This document shows, piece after piece, positions 16,229 to 25,132 of a DNA stretch of 59,061 nucleotides. The first letter of the stretch is position 1, and each line of letters starts with the position of its first letter. The DNA is from a virus. Made by a program: the position numbers and the translations under genes. Under the pieces are notes generated by a model. The model worked only from the letters and a program-made list of their open reading frames with translations, was not told the origin of the DNA and did no database searches. The DNA lies in IMG/VR virus record IMGVR_UViG_3300045284_000289, positions 1 through 59,061 of that record; one strand, written 5' to 3'.

Positions 16229-16728
16229 CTGACCGTACATATTCAACCTCTTCTCCTGATCCTGTATCGAGAGAACGGACCGCCACGCTCACCATCACCC
16301 GTGGCCTGCCCGCGTCCGGGAAAACCACGTGGGTGAAAACCCAGATCCGCGACCACCAGGACACCCGGGCACGGATCAGCCGCGACTACCTCCGACTCGG
16401 CATGCACGACGCTGCCCTATTCACCAGCGTCACCGAAGAACACGTGACCCTGGTCGAATACGCGGCGGCGACAGCGCTACTCACCGCCGGGGTGGAGGTC
16501 TACGTGGACGACACCAACCTGGCCGATCTGTACGTCCAGGGGTGGAGTGACCTGGCCCAGTCGCTGTGGGTGCCGTTCCGGGTGCAGGACTTCCGGGATG
16601 TCCCGCTGGAGGTGTGTCTGGACCGTGACCGCCGCCGGTTCTGGACCAGCGGTCACGTGGGTGAACAGGTCATCCGCCGCATGCACGCCCAGTACCTGGC
16701 CGGGGACGTGGCGGTGACCGGTGAGTGA
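16225..16728 (+). CDS. P-loop polynucleotide kinase-like protein, 167 aa
   Basis: Walker A GLPASGKTTW (about residues 27-36). It is followed by RISRDYLR (nucleotide/lid region typical of T4-type kinase domains), VDDTNL (strand end with DxTN) and an Arg-rich C-terminal part (DRDRRRFW). This is the pattern of the 5'-polynucleotide kinase domain, which transfers the ATP gamma-phosphate to 5'-OH ends; no phosphatase domain is present. Together with the Ro60/Y-RNA locus 4 kb away it could belong to RNA repair. A zeta-toxin or other small-molecule kinase is the alternative. Confidence 0.65.
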   Translation: MTDRTYSTSSPDPVSRERTATLTITRGLPASGKTTWVKTQIRDHQDTRARISRDYLRLGMHDAALFTSVTEEHVTLVEYAAATALLTAGVEVYVDDTNLADLYVQGWSDLAQSLWVPFRVQDFRDVPLEVCLDRDRRRFWTSGHVGEQVIRRMHAQYLAGDVAVTGE

Positions 16729-17707
16729 CCGCGTGACGTCCCCCGCCGAGCGGCTCGAAGCGGTCGCGCAGATCCTGATCCTGCTGTCCGTCGGTGGCCT
16801 GGCCGGCGCCGTGTCGTTCGTGCACGTGCACGACTGGACCGTGCACAACGGGCAGCTGTCCTGGGTGGGGTGGACCAACGCCATGGTCACCGAGCTGATC
16901 CAGATCGCGGGTGGCCTGGAGATCAGGCGCCGTAAACGCGAGGCGCTGCCCACCCGGGCGGTGATGGGTGTGCTGGTGGCGGCGGTCGCGGTGTCGTTGA
17001 CCGCGCAGGTCGCGCAGGCCGCGCCCACGGTGTTCGGGTGGGTGGTGTCCGCGCTGCCCGCGCTCGGGTTCTTGACCGTGGTCAAGATCGTGATGGCGCG
17101 GGCCGGGTCGGACCGGGCCGTGACCGCTGGTCCGGTGACCGTGACCCCGGACCTGGACCGGCCGGTCACGGCGACCGCGACCCGGTCCGGTCCGACCGTG
17201 ACCGTGACCGCTGCTGTGACCGGGTCGGACCGGGCGCGGGCGGTCGGACCCGGTCCGACCGTGGACCTCGACCCGACCGGGCGCGGTCCGGACCTGGACC
17301 TCGACCTGGTCCGGTCGGACCTCCCGGTCACGGTCGGGGCGTCACCCGGACCTGTGACCTCGACCCCGGACCGGACCTCGACCGGACCCGGTCCGGTCCC
17401 GCTCGACCTCGACCGTGACCGTGACCGTGACCCGGGTCTGGACCTGGACCTGACCCGGTCACACCCGGACCGCTCGACCGGACCCGCCCAGGTCACGCCC
17501 CTTGACCTGGACCGCGACCGCCTCACCACGGCAGGCTTCGACCCCGACCTGATCGACCGCGGCCTGACCGCCCTGACCACCCTGACCGCGACCGGCGCCA
17601 CGGTCAACCGCGGCACGTTCGCCATGCACCTACGCCAGGCCGGTCAACCGATCGCGACCAACACCGCCGGTCACCTACTCCGCGCCCTTAAGGAGGCGAC
17701 CGCGTGA
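16721..17707 (+). CDS. DUF2637-like membrane protein with Asp/Arg/Leu repeat region, 328 aa
   Basis: The first 120 residues carry four hydrophobic segments and the layout of DUF2637/SpdB-like actinobacterial membrane proteins (SFVHVHDWTVHNGQLSWVGW). Residues about 130-270 are a low-complexity run of Asp, Arg, Leu, Pro, Gly, Val and Thr, encoded by repeated GACC, GACCTG and GGTCC units. The last 55 residues look like a small helical DNA-binding end (INRGTFAMHLRQAG-like). In plasmids such proteins assist conjugal spread; the role in a phage is unclear. Confidence 0.6.
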   Translation: MSDRVTSPAERLEAVAQILILLSVGGLAGAVSFVHVHDWTVHNGQLSWVGWTNAMVTELIQIAGGLEIRRRKREALPTRAVMGVLVAAVAVSLTAQVAQAAPTVFGWVVSALPALGFLTVVKIVMARAGSDRAVTAGPVTVTPDLDRPVTATATRSGPTVTVTAAVTGSDRARAVGPGPTVDLDPTGRGPDLDLDLVRSDLPVTVGASPGPVTSTPDRTSTGPGPVPLDLDRDRDRDPGLDLDLTRSHPDRSTGPAQVTPLDLDRDRLTTAGFDPDLIDRGLTALTTLTATGATVNRGTFAMHLRQAGQPIATNTAGHLLRALKEATA

Positions 17708-18111
17708 TGCTGCCCATCTCGACCGTCATCGCTCTACTCCTAGCCCCCTCGGTCCTCCTGTTGGTCACGATGGTCATGGCCCAAGTCCAGGTCCGGCGGG
17801 AACGAGCCGCGAACGCGGACCTGCAACACGCGCTCGCCGCGCGGGCCCGCCGGACCGGCCACCCCGAAGAGGCCCGCAGGCGGGACACCCTCGCGGACGT
17901 CCCCACCCACCGGGTGTGGCCGTTCCGGCCCCGACCCGCGGTCGAGTTCGAGGTCCCGACCGGGCTCGTGACCGTGACCAGTGACCTGACCGGCGTCGAG
18001 TATGAGCGGCTGAAAGCGCGCTGGGAGGAACAGCTCGGTCAGATCGCTGCCCGAGCTGACGAGACCTACCCGACCCTGCCGCGGCCACGGACCCGATGGT
18101 GGCGGCGGTGA
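17704..18111 (+). CDS. Membrane-anchored protein, 135 aa
   Basis: One N-terminal membrane segment (ISTVIALLLAPSVLLLVTMV) leads into a charged helix and a cytoplasmic domain (VWPFRPRPAVEFEVPTGLVT). It overlaps the DUF2637-like gene by 4 bases and may be its partner. No family recognised. Confidence 0.6.
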   Translation: MMLPISTVIALLLAPSVLLLVTMVMAQVQVRRERAANADLQHALAARARRTGHPEEARRRDTLADVPTHRVWPFRPRPAVEFEVPTGLVTVTSDLTGVEYERLKARWEEQLGQIAARADETYPTLPRPRTRWWRR

Positions 18112-18671
18112 GGACCACGTTCGTCTCGCCCCGGGGCCGCTGCACCGGATGCGGCGAGATGCGGGCCGTGCGGAAGGACGGCCGGGTCGGCCGGCACACG
18201 TCCCTCGGGGTCTACCAGGACACGTGCGAGGGGGCCGGGCTCCCTCCGATGGAGGACACGACGACCCCGGTCCCGACCCTGCCGGGCCCGCTGGTCGGGT
18301 ACCGGGTCCGTATCGAGTGCCCGGTGTGTGATTCGGCCACGGGCCTCAGGACGGACGGGATGGTGGGGTCACACACCTGGTACAAGCCGCAGGTGGGGTG
18401 GGTACGTGGCTGTAGCGGGGTGGGGAAACCTCCCCGGTACAAGTCGACCAACCAGCCGATCGTGCCGGCGTCGCCGCCGGTGACGGTGACCGAGCACGCC
18501 ACCGGCATGTCCGGTGGCGGCATGAACGTACGCCCGGATGACCCGGAGATCGAGCGGGTGTACCCGCTGGCGGTGTGGATCGCGCATCGGCAGCGGGACG
18601 GGGGCCGGGTGTATCGGCGGCGGATCGTGGTGGTTGACGACTGGGAGGAGGTCCCCCGTGTCGACGAGTGA
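18108..18671 (+). CDS. Double CxxC/DG zinc-finger protein with C-terminal extension, 187 aa (family A)
   Basis: Module 1: CTGCGEMRAVRKDGRVGRHT ... CEGAG. Module 2: CPVCDSATGLRTDGMVGSHT ... CSGVG. An extension of about 75 residues ends YRRRIVVVDDWEEVPRVDE. GTG 18108 (GTGA overlap) is preferred; ATG 18096 is possible. It is the longest member of family A. Confidence 0.7.
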   Translation: MRTTFVSPRGRCTGCGEMRAVRKDGRVGRHTSLGVYQDTCEGAGLPPMEDTTTPVPTLPGPLVGYRVRIECPVCDSATGLRTDGMVGSHTWYKPQVGWVRGCSGVGKPPRYKSTNQPIVPASPPVTVTEHATGMSGGGMNVRPDDPEIERVYPLAVWIAHRQRDGGRVYRRRIVVVDDWEEVPRVDE

Positions 18672-18783
18672 TGACCCGATCAGCGCGCTCACCCCTGAGG
18701 ACCGGGCGTGGCTGGAACAGCACGGGTGGCGGGACACCACAAATGATTACCCAATCATTGGCACCGAGAAAATACTGGAGTGA
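18658..18783 (+). CDS. Small protein, 41 aa
   Basis: GTG 18658. The product begins STSDDPISALTPEDRAWLEQ and ends IIGTEKILE. Overlaps both neighbours. No recognised family; a short helical peptide. Confidence 0.5.
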   Translation: MSTSDDPISALTPEDRAWLEQHGWRDTTNDYPIIGTEKILE

Positions 18784-19133
18784 CCATGACCGTGTTTTTC
18801 GGTGACCGGTGGGACGCGCCGATAGTCGATTTGGCGACCCGTGTTGTCACGCCGTTCGGTGAGCCGTGCATGTTCTGTGCGGAACCGATCGAGCCGGGTG
18901 ATCGTGGCGTGCTGCGCCTGTGTGTTGATCTGGTCGACGGGGAAACGGTGACGGATACGCGGCCGGCGCACATGGAATGTGATCTACGTTCCATGCTGGG
19001 TGACGTGGAGCATCTGGAAGGCCGTTGCGCATGCAACGACCCGGCCGCGTCGAGTCGACCGTCTAAGCCGTTCCGGGAACAGGCGCGGGACGTCGTGGCG
19101 TGGTGTGAGGCTATGCGTGGGCGCCCGTTGTGA
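18780..19133 (+). CDS. Zinc-binding protein, 117 aa
   Basis: CMFCAEPIEPGDRGVLR, then HMECDLRSMLGDVEHLEGRC, and ACNDP. The CxxC ... HxxC pattern resembles a small LIM- or treble-clef-like site. The C terminus has FREQARDVVAWCEAM. Function unknown. Confidence 0.65.
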   Translation: MTMTVFFGDRWDAPIVDLATRVVTPFGEPCMFCAEPIEPGDRGVLRLCVDLVDGETVTDTRPAHMECDLRSMLGDVEHLEGRCACNDPAASSRPSKPFREQARDVVAWCEAMRGRPL

Positions 19134-19609
19134 AAGTGATTGTGCGTCAATGCCGTAACTGCGGGTGCGATATGGTGGCCGGATCCGCATACCGGATGTA
19201 CCGGGCATTACGCGACCAGTACACGCGGTGCGGCTCACACGGGTTCTGCACGAACTGTTCCGCCCACATACGACGCCACGGCGGCGATCCCGCCGGACCC
19301 GTTCCTCCCCGGACACAATTCGAGCCGATCCGGCACGGGCAGCCATGCCGGGACTGTCAACGCCCGCTTCTTCCCCAGTCGCTGTACCGGAGCGACATCC
19401 CCCGCTACAAGCCGCTGGGGTACGTGTCGCTGGGCGGCCACGGCATGTGCGTGGCCTGCTACCGGTGGGCGAGAACCCATCAGACACTGCCGGACCCCGG
19501 GCCACCACGGCCTGAACCGCCGGTTCGGTTAGGTCCGCACCCGGACGACGACGGCCCGCTGCACCCCGCCGAGCTGGCCCGCCTGCGTGCCATCCACGGC
19601 GTGGGGTGA
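19130..19609 (+). CDS. Tandem zinc-finger protein, 159 aa (family B)
   Basis: Module 1: CRNCGCDMVAGSAYRMYRAL ... GFCTNCSAH. Module 2: CRDCQRPLLPQSLYR ... HGMCVACYRWA. Layout and C-terminal end (AELARLRAIHGVG) match the 12794 product, so family B has two members at the two ends of this operon. Last gene of the rightward run; its 3' end overlaps a convergent gene. Confidence 0.7.
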   Translation: MKVIVRQCRNCGCDMVAGSAYRMYRALRDQYTRCGSHGFCTNCSAHIRRHGGDPAGPVPPRTQFEPIRHGQPCRDCQRPLLPQSLYRSDIPRYKPLGYVSLGGHGMCVACYRWARTHQTLPDPGPPRPEPPVRLGPHPDDDGPLHPAELARLRAIHGVG

Positions 19610-19717
19610 CGTCCAGTCGTGACACCGCCCGCAGTACCCTTCGGCGATATCCGTGGGGTGCCAGCTGGTTTTCCCGCACCGCGGGCACGTGATCGACGGC
19701 TGGACCGGGGGTGTCAC
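19529..19717 (-). CDS. Zinc-ribbon protein, 62 aa
   Basis: Residues about 10-36 read CPRCGKTSWHPTDIAEGYCG then RCHDW, a compact CxxC...CxxC ribbon of a type I recall from actinophage small proteins. The 3' end overlaps the convergent 19130 gene by 81 bases. The region past HDW has weak composition, so the exact C terminus is less certain. Confidence 0.6.
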   Translation of the reverse strand: MTPPVQPSITCPRCGKTSWHPTDIAEGYCGRCHDWTSPHAVDGTQAGQLGGVQRAVVVRVRT

Positions 19718-19953
19718 AGCCAGATCCAGTCGCTCCGCACCCAGTTCAACCGGTCAGGCTGCAACATCAGCAGGCCGGCGTAGCCCTGGGCTTTGCCGTT
19801 CAGCACGGCCAGGGCCTCGCTTTGGAAGTCCCCTGCCGCGTGCCACTCGTCGGACGTCAACGCCCACCGCCGGGTCCACTCGGGGTCGGGCTGGCCGGGG
19901 ATCAGGCCGGCCATCACCTCCACAATGACGCGGGCGCTCTCGGGTTCGCTCAT
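19714..19953 (-). CDS. Hypothetical protein, 79 aa
   Basis: Sequence EWTRRWALTSDEWHAAGDFQ suggests a compact helical protein. Start ATG 19953. The stop overlaps the zinc-ribbon gene start. No family recognised. Confidence 0.6.
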   Translation of the reverse strand: MSEPESARVIVEVMAGLIPGQPDPEWTRRWALTSDEWHAAGDFQSEALAVLNGKAQGYAGLLMLQPDRLNWVRSDWIWL

Positions 19954-19975
19954 GCCGTGCACAGTAGACGCGCGT

Positions 19976-20101
19976 CTACTCCCAGTGGCAGTTGTCGTGC
20001 GGGACACCCGCGCGGCAGTCAGCGCACGCACTGCGCGAGTCCCTACCCGTGGTCTGCTGGTTGTCGTTGTCGTTGTCGTTGCTGTTGTTGTTCACGCCAT
20101 C
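19976..20101 (-). CDS. Asn/Asp-repeat mini-protein with zinc motif, about 41 aa
   Basis: GTG 20101 or GTG 20092 with AAGGTGG upstream. An Asn/Asp stretch (NNNSNDNDNDN) encoded by a trinucleotide-like repeat leads to CADCRAGVPHDNCHW, a CxxC...CH site. It lies between the Ro60 terminator and small accessory genes. Function unknown. Confidence 0.5.
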   Translation of the reverse strand, partial: DGVNNNSNDNDNDNQQTTGRDSRSACADCRAGVPHDNCHWE

Positions 20102-20160
20102 CACCTTCTCACCCGTTGGTAGGGTTGACACATCTCGGATCCCCTGACCTGGGACCGATA

Positions 20161-20198
20161 GGGCGGTGGACCGGGAGGGCATACCCGGTCCACCGCCC
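20161..20198 (-). terminator. Terminator of the Ro60 transcript
   Basis: GGGCGGTGGACCGGG pairs perfectly with 20184-20198 (15 bp). It lies 7 bases beyond the Ro60 stop and closes the Y RNA-Ro60 transcription unit. Confidence 0.85.
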
Positions 20199-20204
20199 GC
20201 ATAG

Positions 20205-21869
20205 TCAGAACGGCCAGCCGGCGTTCCTGCCCGCTTCCAACAGGGGGATCATCCGGAACGCCGCGTCCGTCAACCCACCGAACACGTGCGTGTTGTCCCG
20301 ACCACCGGACGGCGCGCTCCCCGCCCGGTACCCAGCCAAGTCCCAGATATAGAACGGCACGTCCCGAGACATCCCGCCGGGATGGAACTCACGGCCATAG
20401 CTGTCGTGAGCCTGCTCGTCGGTCACGATCACCACCCGGTCATGGCCGGCGTACCGCTCCCTGACCGCGCCCCAGGTGTTCGTGCCGCCCATGCCCCTGA
20501 ACTGTTGAATGATCGACAGCAGCGACTCGCCGCGCCGGACTTTCAGCGGCGCGCTGTGCGTGCCGTACTGCACCAGATCAGCCTGCTGGGCGCGGGCCGC
20601 CACCGCGGCACCGAACAGACCGGCCGCTTCGGCCCGGGACAGATCCGACTTGGCGGACAGGGATCCGAACATCGACCCGGACATGTCTACCAGGACCAGC
20701 GTCCGCCCCGGCAGCAGGGGAACGTTGCCCAGGGAGTGGTCGAGTCCCTGCTGCAACGCCCACGCCCACCGCAGGGACGGCGCGTTCTTGAACGCGGACA
20801 GGAACCGGAACGGGAACTGCCGCGACCGAGCGACCTCTTCGGGGTCGGCGAGTTTCGCCGCGACCTGCTCGGCGACCTTGTCGGACACACCGGCCTGGTC
20901 GAAGTTGCGGAGGTTCCGCAACAGCGCCATGTACCCCATGGTCGGGATGATCGCTTCCCACGCCACGGTGTCCATCGGCCCGTTGAGCCACCCGGCCAAC
21001 GCCTCCCACGTCATGCCGGCGTCACGCAAGTACTGCGACGCGTCCGGTCCCCACGAGCGGAGCATCGCCGCGCGTTCCCCCTGGGGGATGTCCATCAGGC
21101 GGGCGCGTTCCCGCAGGATCTTCAGGGTGTCGGGGATCGGGTTGTCCCGCCCGTGCCGCCGGTCGATCACGTGTTCGAACAGGTCACCCTGCGGCCGGCC
21201 GGTGTGGGGTGCGGCGTGCACCAGTTCCAGGACGTCACCGAACCGGAACGCATGCGCGCCGGTGTCGTACTTCAACACCGCCCGTTCGGTGTACAGGCGC
21301 CGGACCGCGTCCCCGATCCCGCGTTTGATCGGCTTGGGGACCGCGCGGCCGTAGCGGCGGGTCCAGTAGGCGAGCAGCTCGCCCGGCTCGTCGGCGCGCT
21401 GCAACACGGCGTCGATCACCGTGCGGGACAGGCCACGCCCCACCTGATGCTGTGGCGTCCCGTCGGGCGTGTGCTGCCCGGCGAGCGCGGTCACCGCGCG
21501 GGGCGCCTGCTGGGGGGCCTGGTCCAGGCCCAGTGTTTGGCGGGTCCGGACGAACTCGGCGGCACCAACCAGGGCGGCCGACCGCAGGTTGCCCTCACCG
21601 CGTAGCCAGGTGAGCATTCGGACGGTCCACTCCGGGTCTTCCACGGTCGCGGCCCGGACCAGCCGCTCGTACCGGTCGTCGCGGGCGTCGCTGGTCTCGT
21701 AGAACGTGCGCTCGCTGACCATGTTCGTGACGGCCAGGAGGAACAGTTCGGACTTGGTGTCCCGCAGGTACCCGGCACCGCCCTCGTGGGTGCGGATGGT
21801 GGGGGTGGGTTCGCTGGTGATCGGCGACGTGACAGCCGGTCGCGCGGCGCGGGGGGTGTTGAACTTCGA
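20205..21869 (-). CDS. rsr: TROVE-domain protein, Ro60/Rsr homolog, 554 aa
   Basis: Ro60 is a ring of HEAT-like helices that binds Y RNAs on its outer face and misfolded RNA ends in its cavity. Hallmarks seen: THEGGAGYLRDTKSELFLLA (about residues 27-46), ERTFYE, WLRGEGNLRSAALVGAAEFV, and a C-terminal vWA domain with the MIDAS motif DMSGSM and later VIVTDEQAHD. The length is normal for the bacterial/phage family. TTG 21869 is chosen because AAGGG precedes it and the protein then starts SKFNTPRAARPAV; upstream GTG/ATG codons lie next to the Y RNA A stem. The four RNA genes just upstream on the same strand strongly suggest an RNP. Confidence 0.93.
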   Translation of the reverse strand, partial: SKFNTPRAARPAVTSPITSEPTPTIRTHEGGAGYLRDTKSELFLLAVTNMVSERTFYETSDARDDRYERLVRAATVEDPEWTVRMLTWLRGEGNLRSAALVGAAEFVRTRQTLGLDQAPQQAPRAVTALAGQHTPDGTPQHQVGRGLSRTVIDAVLQRADEPGELLAYWTRRYGRAVPKPIKRGIGDAVRRLYTERAVLKYDTGAHAFRFGDVLELVHAAPHTGRPQGDLFEHVIDRRHGRDNPIPDTLKILRERARLMDIPQGERAAMLRSWGPDASQYLRDAGMTWEALAGWLNGPMDTVAWEAIIPTMGYMALLRNLRNFDQAGVSDKVAEQVAAKLADPEEVARSRQFPFRFLSAFKNAPSLRWAWALQQGLDHSLGNVPLLPGRTLVLVDMSGSMFGSLSAKSDLSRAEAAGLFGAAVAARAQQADLVQYGTHSAPLKVRRGESLLSIIQQFRGMGGTNTWGAVRERYAGHDRVVIVTDEQAHDSYGREFHPGGMSRDVPFYIWDLAGYRAGSAPSGGRDNTHVFGGLTDAAFRMIPLLEAGRNAGWPF

Positions 21870-21908
21870 CAAGGGGGCTCGACCCTTCAGGGGGAAGGGG
21901 AGCATGCG

Positions 21909-22070
21909 CACGTCAGGGATGGCGCCCGAGATCAGAGTCGGTGACGGTGACGAAGCGTGCTGCCGTTACACCACACTCGCCGAAGCGAGCGACGGGATTC
22001 GAACCCGCTCTACCCAATTAACAGTTGGAAGTAACCGTTGCCTACGCACCGAGCACCATCGTCTGACGTG
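21909..22070 (-). ncRNA. Y RNA A: Y-RNA-like stem with complete circularly permuted tRNA-Asn-like module
   Basis: Outer stem: GATGGTGCTCGG (22060-22049) pairs fully, counting G-U, with TCGGGCGCCATC (21929-21918), extended by CACGTCAG/CTGACGTG (22070-22063 with 21916-21909). Conserved CGGUGCG and GAUCUCGG flank it. Inside, in order: anticodon-type arm UCCAA-CUGUUAA-UUGGG with GUU at 22022-22020; 4-base variable loop; T arm GCGGG-UUCGAAU-CCCGU (22008-21992); acceptor 3' strand CGCUCGC; UUCG cap; acceptor 5' strand GCGAGUG; UG; D arm (21971-21957). This is a full cloverleaf opened between positions 26 and 27 and closed at the acceptor end. The 5' part overlaps the end of Y RNA B, so it is probably cut from a longer transcript. 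Confidence 0.8.
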
Positions 22071-22164
22071 TGCTGCTCCCGAGATCAAGGTCACCGGCGG
22101 CATTTTCTGTCTACCTTGGAAGGGTGGGTGAAGTAGCCGCTGGTTTCGCACCGGGTGCACGCCC
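22070..22164 (-). ncRNA. Y RNA B: short Y-RNA-like RNA without tRNA module
   Basis: CCCGG (22155-22151) pairs with UCGGG (22082-22078), with an outer GUGC/GCAC pair. An inner stem ACC-A-GCGGC pairs with GCCGC-C-GGU around a single mismatch. The conserved pieces CGGUGCG, UACUUC and CUUGAUCUCGG are all present, but the interior is only about 30 bases and has no T or D arm. It has its own promoter. It may be the minimal Ro60-binding form. Confidence 0.65.
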
Positions 22165-22165
22165 T

Positions 22166-22194
22166 ACGCTACACAGTCGGATAAGACCGCGCAA
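22166..22194 (-). promoter_or_regulatory. Promoter for Y RNA B (and A/Ro60)
   Basis: TTGCGC (22194-22189), 17 bases, TAGCGT (22171-22166), predicted start at G 22164. TAGCGT is also the -10 of both promoters near 57.7 kb. Confidence 0.7.
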
Positions 22195-22210
22195 GCGGGA
22201 TGCCGCGTGG

Positions 22211-22324
22211 GGAGTGTCCGAGGTCAAGACGGTGAGGGAGTGCTCGCCTACCGAGCTGTGGTCCGCATCAGACGGACCCCAGGAATCGAACCCGAAGTAG
22301 CCCTTACCCGCGCACCGGACACCC
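22211..22324 (-). ncRNA. Y RNA C: Y-RNA-like RNA with reduced tRNA-like module
   Basis: Outer stem GGGUGUCCGG (from 22324) pairs with UCGGACACUCC (ending 22211). Inner stem GGU-A-AGGG pairs with CCCU-C-ACC. The module holds a T arm (UCGGG-UUCGAUU-CCUGG), an acceptor-like hairpin (GGUCCG ... CGGACC) and a short D-like arm (GCUCG-GUAGG-CGAGC), in permuted order, with no anticodon arm. CGGUGCG, CUACUUC and CUUGACCUCGG match the other three RNAs. No clear own promoter; a TTGACT lies upstream without a good -10. Confidence 0.7.
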
Positions 22325-22333
22325 AACGCCACG

Positions 22334-22350
22334 CCTGCTCCCGCAACGCG
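22334..22350 (-). terminator. Hairpin between Y RNAs D and C
   Basis: CTCCCGC-GTT-GCGGGAG, a 7-bp perfect stem just 3' of Y RNA D, with no U-run. It may protect or delimit the D transcript and allow read-through to C. Confidence 0.5.
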
Positions 22351-22364
22351 GGAGTCAACTTGAT

Positions 22365-22511
22365 GCACCCGAGATCAAGATCAGCGACGGACTATCACAC
22401 CAATGCTCTACCAGGCTGAGCTACAGCCAGGGGTGCTACCCCTGGCGGGCGGGATTCGAACCCGCGACCCTTGGTTCCAGCTGAAGTAACCGTCACCCAC
22501 GCACCGAGTGC
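22365..22511 (-). ncRNA. Y RNA D: Y-RNA-like RNA with permuted tRNA-like module opened at the anticodon loop
   Basis: Outer stem GCACUCGG (22511-22504) pairs with UCGGGUGC (22372-22365). Inner stem GGUGACGG pairs with CCGUCGCU over 8 bp. Between them: ACCAA/UUGGU acts as an anticodon stem whose loop side joins the Y stem; T arm GCGGG-UUCGAAU-CCCGC (22465-22449); acceptor-like hairpin GCCAGGGG-UAGCA-CCCCUGGC (22446-22426); canonical D arm with CCUGGUA loop (22421-22405). This is the layout described for bacterial YrlA tRNA mimics. It is the first RNA of the cluster and has a promoter-like -10. Confidence 0.78.
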
Positions 22512-22517
22512 CCCCGC

Positions 22518-22523
22518 ACAATA
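22518..22523 (-). promoter_or_regulatory. -10 box of the Y RNA D promoter
   Basis: TATTGT (22523-22518) fits TANNNT and would start transcription near G 22512-22511, exactly where the outer stem of Y RNA D begins. The -35 is not convincing. Confidence 0.55.
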
Positions 22524-22547
22524 CACGCCTGATCGGAACCGACACAC

Positions 22548-22553
22548 TAGAAT
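22548..22553 (+). promoter_or_regulatory. -10 box of leaderless promoter for the PadR gene
   Basis: TAGAAT ends 6 bases before ATG 22560, so the transcript would begin at or next to the start codon. It is divergent from the Y RNA promoter; the two -10 boxes lie about 25 bases apart. Confidence 0.6.
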
Positions 22554-22559
22554 TACGGC

Positions 22560-22871
22560 ATGTCCCTGGGTCGAGTACGGATCCCCACACTCCTCGTGCT
22601 CCACGTGCTACTCACCCAGCCCAGCGAGATCCACGGGTGGGCCGTGGTCACCGAAACCAGCCTGGCCGGCGGCACCGTCTACCCGATCCTGCAACGCCTG
22701 GAAAACATCGGGTGGGTCACCTCCCGGTGGGACCACACCCAGACCGGTCGGCCGCCGCGCCGCTACTACCGGGTCGTCGAAGCCCACCGGCGTGAAGCGG
22801 CCGGTCTGGTCGCCGCCCGCATGGCCGCCGTCCACACGGCGCCGCACAGAAAGGCGGCGCGCGATGCCTAA
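22560..22871 (+). CDS. PadR-family winged-helix regulator, 103 aa
   Basis: Contains the PadR winged-helix signature: HGWAVVTETSLAGGTVYPIL, then QRLENIGWVTSRW and GRPPRRYYRV. PadR proteins are dimeric repressors. The gene is probably leaderless, begins the late operon and overlaps the putative small terminase gene by 8 bases. It is placed to control both the late genes and the divergent Y RNA-Ro60 unit. The usual C-terminal dimer helix is short. Confidence 0.8.
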   Translation: MSLGRVRIPTLLVLHVLLTQPSEIHGWAVVTETSLAGGTVYPILQRLENIGWVTSRWDHTQTGRPPRRYYRVVEAHRREAAGLVAARMAAVHTAPHRKAARDA

Positions 22872-23469
22872 ACGCGTTCCGACCGACAGACCCAAGTGCA
22901 CCGGCCACACCCCGATCAAAGTCGACGGGATCAAACAGCGCGACGAACACGGGAAGGTCATCACCCGGCCCTGCGAACGGTGGCCCATCAACGGCGGCAC
23001 CGTGTGCCGCTCCCACGGCGGCGGGATCCGCCACGTCCGGGAAGCGGCCGACCGTCGCTACGCCGAGCAGCAGGTACGCGGCAAGCTGGCGAAGCTGATC
23101 GACACCGGCGCCATGATCGACGACCCGCTCACCGAGCTGTCCAAGCTCGCCACCGAAGCGGTGCTGTGGAAGGACATCATGGCCCAGCAGGTCGCCGGGT
23201 TGGCCGAGTACCGGTATGAGGACGTACGCGGCAGCGAGCAGTTGCGTTCGGAAATCGCGATGTTCGAGCGGGCCATGGACCGGTGTAACACCATCCTGGT
23301 CGGGATCGCGAAACTCAACATCGACGACCGGCTGATGGCGATTAAGGAATACCAGGTCGAACGCGTGTTGGGCGCGATCGACGCGGCGTTGACCCACGCC
23401 GGGGTCCCGGCCGAGCTGATCGCGCCGGCGAAGATACAGGCGGCACGGCACCTACACGCGACAGCCTGA
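22864..23469 (+). CDS. Putative small terminase subunit, 201 aa
   Basis: N-terminal zinc-type motif C-x33-CERWPINGGTVCRSHGG, seen before large terminases in many actinophages. A long helical region follows (EQQVRGKLAKLIDTG; EYQVERVLGAIDAALTHAG). The position directly before the large terminase supports a DNA-recognition role in packaging. Assignment rests mostly on position. Confidence 0.6.
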   Translation: MPKRVPTDRPKCTGHTPIKVDGIKQRDEHGKVITRPCERWPINGGTVCRSHGGGIRHVREAADRRYAEQQVRGKLAKLIDTGAMIDDPLTELSKLATEAVLWKDIMAQQVAGLAEYRYEDVRGSEQLRSEIAMFERAMDRCNTILVGIAKLNIDDRLMAIKEYQVERVLGAIDAALTHAGVPAELIAPAKIQAARHLHATA

Positions 23470-23487
23470 CCGACAGGGGGGTGCGCG

Positions 23488-24933
23488 GTGGACATGCTGC
23501 TGATGGTTGCCGACCGACTGAACCGGCCACCGGACGCGCCCGGCAACGACCCTAAGAAGGACAAGTATCCGTCACCCGGCGCGTTGGCTGCGGCGCTCGA
23601 CCCCCGCAACACGATCGAAACACCGGCGTTGGCGCTGCTGGACCGTGAGCTGGTCGACGTCGCGGACGGGGTCACCGACCGCCTGATGTGGTTCATGCCT
23701 CCCCAGGAGGGCAAAAGCCAGCGGGTGTCCCGTTGGTTCCCGCTGTGGATGCTGCACCGGAATCCCGAACTCAGGATCGCGATCGCGTCCTATGAGCTGG
23801 GCGCGGCACGCCGGTGGGGGCGGCAGATCCGTAACGAGATCCTGACCCATCCCGAGCTGGGGTTACGGGTCCGGCGCGATAGTTCAGCGGCGCACGAGTG
23901 GCAGCTGGAAGGCCATGAGGGGGGCGTGTACTGCGTTGGCGTGGGTGGCCCGCTGACCGGCCGCCCCGTGGACCTGATGATCATCGACGACCCGGTTAAG
24001 GGCCGTGCGGAAGCCGACAGCGAAACCTACCGGGAGACCGCGAAAGCCTGGTGGTCGGAGACCGTCAACGCACGCCTGGGTGAGAACACGCCCGTCGTGC
24101 TGATCATGACCCGGTGGCATGAGGACGACCTGGCCGGCTATCTCAAGACCGAGCACCCCGAGGAGTGGCGGGTCGTCAACATCCCCGCACTGGCCGACCA
24201 CGATCCCGCCAAGGGTGAGCGTGACCCGCTGGACCGTGAACCTGGCGAGTGGCTCACGTCCGCGCGGCGCCGCACGATCCGGGGATGGGAGAAGCGGCGC
24301 GCCAACTTCGGCCCGCGCGGGTTCCAGGCACTGTGCCAGGGACGGCCCGCGCCGGCGGAAGGTGCGATGTTCAAGCGGAGGTGGTGGCGGTACTACACCG
24401 CGCCCCAGTGGGTCGAGAAGGACGGGTCCCTGCGGGCGGAGTTCGACCAGATGATCCAGTCGTGGGACATGGCGTTCAAGGACACTAAGGCCACGGACTA
24501 TGTGGTGGGGCAGGTGTGGGGGCGGCGCGGCGCGAACGCCTACCTGCTCGACCAGATCCGTGACCGGTTGGACTTCCCGGCCACGTGCAAGGCCATGGCG
24601 GCGTTGACGGCACGCTGGCCCCAGGCGCACGCGAAGCTGGTGGAGGAGAAGGCGAACGGTGCCGCGGTGATCGCGCAGTTACGCAACACGATTCCCGGGC
24701 TGATCCCGATCACCCCGCACGAGTCGAAGGAGGCGCGGGCGGCGGCCGTGTCGCCGTTCGTGGAGTCGGGGAACGTGTACCTGCCGGATCCCGTGTTGTT
24801 GGGGTGGGTGGGCACGTTCCTGGCTGAGACGTCGTCCTTCCCGACGGGCACGCACGACGATCAGGTGGACGCCCTGTCGCAGGCCCTGGACCGGTTGTTG
24901 ATCACGTCGAAGCCGCGAGTGCGGTTCATGTGA
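23488..24933 (+). CDS. terL: Large terminase subunit, 481 aa
   Basis: ATPase motor and nuclease for DNA packaging. Walker A-like MPPQEGKSQRVSRW (about residues 71-84), Walker B LMIIDDPVKG (about 165-174), motif MTRWHEDDL after it. RNase H-like nuclease part: SWDMAFKD and later HDDQVDALSQALD. The length is typical. GTG 23488 start. The 3' end overlaps the convergent excisionase-like gene by 8 bases. Confidence 0.93.
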   Translation: MDMLLMVADRLNRPPDAPGNDPKKDKYPSPGALAAALDPRNTIETPALALLDRELVDVADGVTDRLMWFMPPQEGKSQRVSRWFPLWMLHRNPELRIAIASYELGAARRWGRQIRNEILTHPELGLRVRRDSSAAHEWQLEGHEGGVYCVGVGGPLTGRPVDLMIIDDPVKGRAEADSETYRETAKAWWSETVNARLGENTPVVLIMTRWHEDDLAGYLKTEHPEEWRVVNIPALADHDPAKGERDPLDREPGEWLTSARRRTIRGWEKRRANFGPRGFQALCQGRPAPAEGAMFKRRWWRYYTAPQWVEKDGSLRAEFDQMIQSWDMAFKDTKATDYVVGQVWGRRGANAYLLDQIRDRLDFPATCKAMAALTARWPQAHAKLVEEKANGAAVIAQLRNTIPGLIPITPHESKEARAAAVSPFVESGNVYLPDPVLLGWVGTFLAETSSFPTGTHDDQVDALSQALDRLLITSKPRVRFM

Positions 24934-25132
24934 CGGGTGGGTGGCGGCGGGTGGCTTCCCACGCGGCGACGTCGTCGGCGGCGTAGAGCACGCGGCGCCC
25001 GATGCGGGTCCCGGCGGGTCCGGTTCCGATCTGCCGCCAGTAACGGATGGTGCTCAGCCGGGTTCGGAATCTTTCGGCCAACTCTTCCGACGTGTAGTAG
25101 ATGATTTCCCGCTCGGGTTCGTTAACGGTCAT
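24926..25132 (-). CDS. Excisionase/MerR-like winged-helix protein, 68 aa
   Basis: EREIIYYTSEELAERFRTRL, STIRYWRQIG, then GRRVLYAADDVAAWEATRR: the helix-turn-helix plus wing of the small excisionase/AlpA-type family. It lies antisense between terminase and portal. No integrase is present in the window, so regulation is more likely than excision. Start ATG 25132. Confidence 0.75.
   Translation of the reverse strand: MTVNEPEREIIYYTSEELAERFRTRLSTIRYWRQIGTGPAGTRIGRRVLYAADDVAAWEATRRHPPVT

What the first reader, a model, noticed from the sequence alone, without database searches (positions are those of the whole stretch)
20205..22511. Phage cassette of one Ro60 protein and four tandem Y-RNA-like genes
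Upstream of the TROVE gene, on the same strand, four RNAs share a 5' CGGUGCG, an internal YUACUUC and a 3' CUUGAYCUCGG-like motif, each closed by a matched stem of 5-12 bp with compensating changes between copies. Ro60-Y RNA particles are known in animals and bacteria (YrlA), and phage homologs have been noted; four different Y RNAs with graded tRNA mimicry next to one Ro60 gene look unusual. The set may present several RNA faces on one Ro60 ring during infection.
Basis: partly seen in the sequence, partly recalled or inferred. Interest (0 to 1): 0.95.

Follow-up and report, generated by a model that had tools for sequence, protein, structure and literature searches.

The report
Phage Ro60 with four Y RNAs
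This actinobacterial virus carries a gene for the RNA-binding ring protein Ro60 together with four small Y RNAs, two to three of which copy parts of transfer RNA in scrambled order; related viruses and bacteria carry similar sets with up to eight members, a family that current RNA databases miss.

Summary
A covariance model built only from other phages and bacteria finds exactly four Y RNAs in the window (60-107 bits, E 7e-13 to 2e-24; next best hit E 0.6), all on the minus strand, directly upstream of a Ro60 gene. That gene has TROVE and vWA domains, an intact MIDAS, the Y-contact histidine conserved, and a Ro60 fold. "Four is unusual" does not hold: tandem Y arrays are the rule next to Ro60 in actinobacteria (2-3) and phages (2-8), including Caulobacter, Rhizobium and Xanthomonas phages. 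What looks new is the anatomy. The sampled arrays score below Rfam's YrlA threshold. They share UACUUC. The Ro-proximal stem is constant inside an array but differs between phages. A -10 box tends to precede only the first unit. The long Y RNAs carry a circularly permuted tRNA body with D-arms of different tRNA types, and in 118 of 278 units a perfect anticodon-like hairpin with differing triplets. In the window, RNA1 has a split anticodon stem, RNA4 a closed anticodon-like hairpin, RNA2 a reduced tRNA-like domain, RNA3 none. Most likely it is a mobile Ro60 RNP with interchangeable tRNA-mimic adaptors. What they recruit is untested.

The parts
20205..21863 (-). Ro60 (TROVE/vWA) protein gene, probable start TTG 21863 (ORF runs to GTG 21911)
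   Evidence: Pfam TROVE 2.9e-17, PHROG 850 RNA-binding 1.8e-47, AF2 pLDDT 87 with Ro60 fold, alignment to relatives
22364..22512 (-). Y RNA 1 (149 nt), YrlA-like; T-arm 22449-22465, D-arm 22405-22421 (GCUC/GAGC), split anticodon-like stem ACCAA 22471-22475 with UUGGU 22399-22403
   Evidence: CM R1 95.6 bits E 1.3e-21; Rfam YrlA 38.9 bits; fold; parse
22213..22323 (-). Y RNA 2 (111 nt), reduced tRNA-like domain: T-arm-like hairpin, acceptor-like hairpin, degenerate D-arm
   Evidence: CM R1 71.6 bits E 1.1e-15; sequence and fold
22074..22159 (-). Y RNA 3 (86 nt), short type without tRNA-like domain
   Evidence: CM R1 60.2 bits E 7e-13
21921..22057 (-). Y RNA 4 (137 nt); closed anticodon-like hairpin UCCAA-CUGUUAA-UUGGG 22013-22029, T-arm 21992-22008, Gln-type D-arm GUGU-AACGGCA-GCAC 21957-21971
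   Evidence: CM R1 107.4 bits E 1.6e-24; ASL test; D-arm; Rfam tRNA 25 bits below cut-off
22518..22523 (-). -10-like box TATTGT, 11 nt before Y RNA 1
   Evidence: position matches the boxes of other first-of-array units; inference
22166..22194 (-). promoter-like TTGCGC-17 nt-TAGCGT before Y RNA 3
   Evidence: sequence; inference only, not found by the consensus scan
22560..22871 (+). PadR-like regulator, divergent neighbour (context, not shown to belong)
   Evidence: Pfam PadR 1.9e-11

Best explanation
The cassette encodes a phage-borne Ro60 ribonucleoprotein with a set of interchangeable Y RNAs. Shown by sequence: one Ro60 protein and four Y RNAs in tandem on one strand, sharing the terminal stem and motif expected to bind Ro60, with different inner domains. 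Inferred: the array is transcribed from one or two promoters and processed. Each Y RNA docks on the outer surface of the Ro60 ring by its terminal stem and presents its inner domain as an adaptor. Long ones present a circularly permuted tRNA body, with the Y stem inserted in the anticodon loop or at the D-arm/anticodon-arm junction, to tRNA-binding partners. Short ones only gate or stabilise Ro60. During infection the RNP would therefore steer RNA quality control or decay towards, or shield, tRNA-like substrates, with each Y RNA presenting a different tRNA type.
For: Four CM hits with a model that excluded the window. Covariation in all helices. Ro60 fold with best matches phage phiLo Ro60, Xenopus Ro and Deinococcus Rsr. 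Invariant MIDAS residues D409/S411/S413, T477 and D498, and the histidine aligned to Xenopus H187 conserved in at least 90% of relatives; H187 is the essential Y RNA contact (PMC4030889). The Ro-proximal motif is constant within each array and different between phages, as expected of a co-evolving Ro60 site. T-arm and D-arm are conserved. Perfect 5-bp/7-nt anticodon-like hairpin 4-5 nt before the T-arm in 118 of 278 long units; shuffles mean 4.65, maximum 14. In 13 of 13 arrays with two closed hairpins the triplets differ. -10 box upstream of first units, viral 44/89 and bacterial 62/80, versus internal 14/158 and 3/119.
Against: No transcript, binding or infection data. RNA folding energy alone is not above shuffles. 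Some units lie downstream of or far from Ro60 (L009, L084, L067), so a single leader transcript is not universal. In the window the spacers are 16-53 nt and two promoter-like sites exist, so processing is unproven. The adaptor's partner is unknown; whether a host of this phage has a responsive PNPase was not examined.
Confidence: 0.72

Rival explanations
1. RYPER-like function: the tRNA-like domain tethers phage Ro60 to host PNPase, making a nuclease for structured RNA, as in Deinococcus radiodurans; several Y RNAs only tune dosage.
For: Known for D. radiodurans Rsr/Y RNA/PNPase (PMC8394870; PMC8058203). The protein and the T-arm, D-arm and acceptor-like layout are the same kind.
Against: Does not explain why inner domains differ in D-arm type and triplet inside one array or why short units without the domain are kept. 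PNPase binding is untestable here.
Confidence: 0.35
2. Counter-defence decoys: the different tRNA-like domains, several with anticodon-like loops, are Ro60-bound decoys or inhibitors for host nucleases and toxins that attack tRNA.
For: Hughes et al. [quoted passage not shown] Phages have more units per locus (24/92 with four or more, versus 2/80 in bacteria). Loops keep C32 U33 ... A37 A38 and triplets differ within arrays. Many of these Ro60 genes sit among phage tRNA genes.
Against: Chromosomal Streptomyces loci also carry two D-arm types, so diversity is not phage-specific. Window RNA1 has no closed anticodon hairpin and RNA3 no tRNA-like domain. No nuclease target is known.
Confidence: 0.25
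3. Cis-regulatory leader: the repeats are binding sites in the Ro60 mRNA leader for autoregulation rather than trans-acting Y RNAs.
For: The last unit usually ends 40-60 nt before the Ro60 start and one promoter-like box precedes the array.
Against: Units downstream of Ro60 (L009 Atuin, L026) or about 1.5-2 kb upstream (L067, L084). A stem plus T-run follows the last unit in 20 of 169 arrays, which would cut Ro60 off. Full tRNA-like domains are not needed for autoregulation.
Confidence: 0.12
4. Decayed phage tRNA genes or a remnant tRNA array.
For: ARAGORN calls false tRNAs overlapping more than 50 related Y units; RNA4 has a weak tRNA hit.
Against: Arms occur in permuted order (T-arm before D-arm), enclosed by a covarying Ro stem; the window has no tRNA by ARAGORN; short units lack any tRNA part yet keep the stem.
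Confidence: 0.02

Closest known systems
Bacterial Y RNA / YrlA (Rfam RF02553; Chen et al. 2014, Sim and Wolin 2018 known here only through citations)
   Same: Terminal stem, T-arm, acceptor-like stem, D-arm in permuted tRNA order, location next to a Ro60 gene
   Different: Scores far below Rfam's gathering threshold (38.9 against 69); YrlA's second 7-bp helix is absent in related units; shared UACUUC; closed anticodon-like hairpin in about 40% of long units; D-arms of several tRNA types within one array; short units without tRNA domain
Salmonella rsr-yrlBA-rtcBA RNA repair operon (PMC7790460)
   Same: One Ro60 gene with more than one Y RNA
   Different: Two Y RNAs with RtcBA and RtcR; here four Y RNAs. 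A full search of the window for RtcB, RtcA or RtcR was not made
Thermus phage phiLo Ro60 (PDB 9kop, 9l5y, 2025)
   Same: Phage-encoded Ro60; best structural match (E 1e-17) and best sequence match in the PDB
   Different: About 21% identity; reported as a dimer; its Y RNAs were not examined here
Ro-like RNA-binding proteins of actinobacteriophages (GiJojo, BRock, VanLee, Neville, Atuin, Satis)
   Same: Homologous protein, 35-46% identity, with Y RNA arrays at the sampled loci
   Different: Their Y RNAs are unannotated or annotated as tRNAs

Membership tests
Ro60 / TROVE protein | TROVE domain and overall Ro60 fold (HEAT ring plus vWA) | tested here: met
   Pfam TROVE 63.4 bits against cut-off 23; Foldseek to 1yvp, 2nvo, 9l5y, probability 1.0
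Ro60 / TROVE protein | vWA MIDAS motif DxSxS...T...D | tested here: met
   D409, S411, S413, T477, D498 invariant in 23 proteins
Ro60 / TROVE protein | Y RNA contact residues (Xenopus H187; K170 from own knowledge) | tested here: met
   Profile alignment places conserved H and K at those positions; H187 role from PMC4030889
Ro60 / TROVE protein | Binds Y RNAs | not testable with these tools
   needs pull-down or EMSA
Y RNA (general) | Terminal base-paired stem with conserved Ro-binding motif, encoded near Ro60 | tested here: met
Rfam YrlA RF02553 | Score at or above gathering threshold 69 bits | tested here: not met
   38.9 bits best in window; none of the Y units in 8 related loci passes
Rfam YrlA RF02553 | T-arm, acceptor-like stem and D-arm in that order | tested here: met
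   RNA1 and RNA4 yes, RNA2 partly, RNA3 no
Rfam YrlA RF02553 | Second 7-bp helix between terminal stem and tRNA-like domain | tested here: not met
   In three related units (Xanthomonas phage) the helix pairs are mostly non-standard, and R1 has UACUUC and loop there; the window's own hit covers only model positions 23-85
RYPER complex | Y RNA-mediated tethering of PNPase | not testable with these tools
   no interaction data
tRNA gene | Canonical order of acceptor, D, anticodon and T arms | tested here: not met
   ARAGORN finds no tRNA in the window; arms are permuted

The most novel reading that the evidence does not exclude
Ro60 arrays are sets of circularly permuted tRNA mimics of different tRNA types, some with a complete anticodon-like hairpin. 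A Ro60 ring uses them as exchangeable adaptors or decoys for particular tRNA-binding enzymes or tRNA-cleaving toxins, and phages have enlarged the set to up to eight members.
Probability: 0.3. Interest if true: 0.88.

Novelty: new variant of a known kind. Interest (0 to 1): 0.68.

Why it matters
The role of phage Ro60 genes is unknown, and their RNA partners are largely unannotated or mislabelled as tRNAs. The covariance model and the array rules found here (shared UACUUC, lineage-specific Ro motif, promoter box before the first unit, permuted tRNA bodies of several types) make those partners findable. They also give a testable reason for keeping several Y RNAs per Ro60: each presents a different tRNA type. 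This bears on the open question of what Ro60 and bacterial Y RNAs do, and on phage handling of host tRNA damage.

Tried and rejected
Folding energy as proof: z about -1.3 for each RNA, rejected as evidence. E. coli sigma-70 consensus scan near the array: nothing in place; replaced by comparative -10 box counts. Un-permuting closed-hairpin units and asking ARAGORN: 110 of 118 accepted, but 107 with a shuffled D segment also accepted, so this test says nothing about the D-arm. D-arm diversity as a phage invention: rejected, Streptomyces loci also mix GCUC/GAGC and Leu-like GCGG..ACGC D-arms; excess of mixed arrays over random assignment is modest (19 of 28, null 15.3, p about 0.025), and that parse leaves 73 units unclassified. 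U36 enrichment in the anticodon-like loops (41 of 68 distinct, versus 110 of 280 tRNAs, p 0.0025) is not corrected for relatedness. P1 pairing statistics are partly circular because model units were chosen with P1 pairing; P2, T-arm, acceptor-like and D-arm helices were not. Key papers on bacterial Y RNAs (Chen 2014, Sim and Wolin 2018, Sim 2020) are not held, so prior description of multi-Y arrays or anticodon-like hairpins cannot be excluded.

Full report
What is there. The window is a 59,061-base IMG/VR virus record with terminase, portal and Clp protease genes on the plus strand. On the minus strand lies a TROVE gene, 20205-21911 (Pfam TROVE 63.4 bits; PHROG 850 RNA-binding protein). Relatives start at an xKFN motif, which in the window is TTG 21863. 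Upstream, on the same strand, are four RNAs with CGGUGCG, UACUUC and a GAUCUCGG-type 3' motif. The pattern GGTGCG-N11-TACTTC occurs four times in the window and is expected 0.01 times.

Independent proof. Upstream of Ro60 in phages from GenBank and IMG/VR and in actinobacterial genomes the same units recur in tandem. A covariance model from 42 such units, none from the window, finds exactly four units in the window: 21921-22057, 22364-22512, 22213-22323 and 22074-22159, with E 1.6e-24, 1.3e-21, 1.1e-15 and 7e-13. The next hit has E 0.61. On the 42-unit alignment 26 of 31 pairs show two-sided changes, and the covariation score is 0.443 against 0.129 shuffled and at most 0.098 when slid. Selection of units used pairing of the outermost stem, so that helix is partly circular; the other helices are not.

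How common. Viral loci have 1 to 8 units (92 loci: 2, 35, 31, 10, 10, 3, 0, 1 loci with 1 to 8 units); actinobacterial loci 1 to 4 (80 loci: 6, 30, 42, 2). These counts are for loci where the model had at least one hit at E 0.01. The commonest bacterial order is long-short-long; the window is long-long-short-long. The model also finds arrays upstream of Ro60 in Xanthomonas phage 10KY502B (3), Caulobacter phage CcrPW (7, with an eighth readable by eye), Rhizobium phage TM39 (6) and, weakly, Bacillus phage G. So four Y RNAs beside one Ro60 is ordinary for this group. Protein trees mix phage and bacterial Ro60 with about nine changes of label; the nearest to the window are two other phage copies and then Actinoallomurus (FastTree, weak support).

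Anatomy. UACUUC is found in nearly every unit inspected. The Ro-proximal motif is constant inside an array but differs between phages: GGUGCG/CUUGAUCUCGG here, CGAUGCG/UUUUUCUAGG in the BRock group, CGAAGUGCAG/CGUUGUCGGG in L018 and L098, GGAGCGU/UGUUGGCCGG in Frankenweenie, GUGGUGUAG/UGUUCCC in Xanthomonas. That is what co-evolution with a Ro60 binding site would give. Long units hold, in order, T-arm, acceptor-like hairpin and D-arm, a permuted tRNA. In 118 of 278 long units a perfect 5-bp stem with a 7-nt loop lies 4-5 nt before the T-arm (all other loop and spacing combinations gave at most 5 perfect cases per setting; shuffled mean 4.65, maximum 14). The loop is mostly C-U-N-N-N-A-A. In 60 of the other 160 the stem is split between head and D-arm tail (shuffled mean 15.9, maximum 25). 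D-arms come in several types resembling different tRNAs: GCUC/GAGC; Gln-like GUGUAA..GCAC; Glu-like GUCUA..GGAC; Leu-like GGCGGAA..GACGC. In 13 of 13 arrays with two closed hairpins the triplets differ.

The four window RNAs. RNA1: tRNA-like body with split stem ACCAA/UUGGU, GCUC/GAGC D-arm. RNA2: T-arm, acceptor-like hairpin and a degenerate D-arm. RNA3: no tRNA-like part. RNA4: closed hairpin UCCAA-CUGUUAA-UUGGG and a Gln-type D-arm.

Expression. A -10-like box precedes the first unit of an array in 44 of 89 viral and 62 of 80 bacterial cases, but internal units in 14 of 158 and 3 of 119. Spacers are usually about 13 nt. So an array is probably one transcript that is cut up. In the window TATTGT lies 11 nt before RNA1, and a TTGCGC-17-TAGCGT site before RNA3.

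The protein. AlphaFold2 gives pLDDT 87 and pTM 0.86. Foldseek's best matches are Ro60 of Thermus phage phiLo, human and Xenopus Ro60, and D. radiodurans Rsr. MIDAS residues are invariant, and the histidine that aligns with Xenopus H187, essential for Y RNA contact (PMC4030889), is conserved.

Relation to known systems. It works like, and is homologous to, bacterial Ro60-Y RNA systems. It is not a member of Rfam YrlA as defined: below threshold, and in related units the model's second helix is not formed. Phage Ro60 genes and phage YrlA-like RNAs have been noted before (PMC7765460, PMC7824862), so the kind is known. I found no account of these arrays, the anticodon-like hairpin or the mixed tRNA types, but the main papers on bacterial Y RNAs could not be read.

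Mechanism. Established for other Ro60 systems: the terminal stem binds the ring; the tRNA-like domain recruits a partner, PNPase in D. radiodurans (PMC8394870); a competitive role against an anticodon nuclease has been proposed for YrlA (PMC7790460). Inferred here: different inner domains give one Ro60 several partners or substrates. Which partners is open.

Noticed in passing
L003:3775-3849, L004:3728-3799, L006:3774-3847, L010:3769-3859, L025:2211-2278: Genes annotated as tRNAs (GiJojo tRNA-Arg, VanLee tRNA-Arg, Alone3 tRNA-Ser, Frankenweenie tRNA-Pro, 10KY502B tRNA-Thr) directly upstream of Ro60 overlap Y RNA hits and are probably misannotated Y RNAs.
   Followed up: yes
L179:973-2167: Caulobacter jumbo phage CcrPW has about eight Y RNAs upstream of Ro60 with Gly-, Leu- and other tRNA-type D-arms, mostly the same UACUUC, and its own Ro motif.
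   Followed up: partly
L182:1407-1943: Bacillus phage G shows five TACTTC anchors upstream of its TROVE gene but only one clear model hit; probably a divergent Y array.
   Followed up: no
L023:2527-3781, L080: Y RNAs and ordinary tRNA genes alternate upstream of Ro60.
   Followed up: no
L009:5747-6331: Arthrobacter phage Atuin has most Y RNAs downstream of Ro60, inside its tRNA array.
   Followed up: no
L055:4001-5617: The Ro60 reading frame as matched contains one stop codon in this viral contig while the Y RNAs look intact.
   Followed up: no
window 16721-25000: The Ro60/Y cassette runs against the direction of the neighbouring plus-strand genes, next to a PadR-like gene and the terminase, like an inserted moron.
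   Followed up: partly
related loci, closed anticodon-like hairpins: Position 36 of the hairpins is U in 41 of 68 distinct cases (110 of 280 true tRNAs), i.e. a bias to triplets of ANN-decoding tRNAs.
   Followed up: partly
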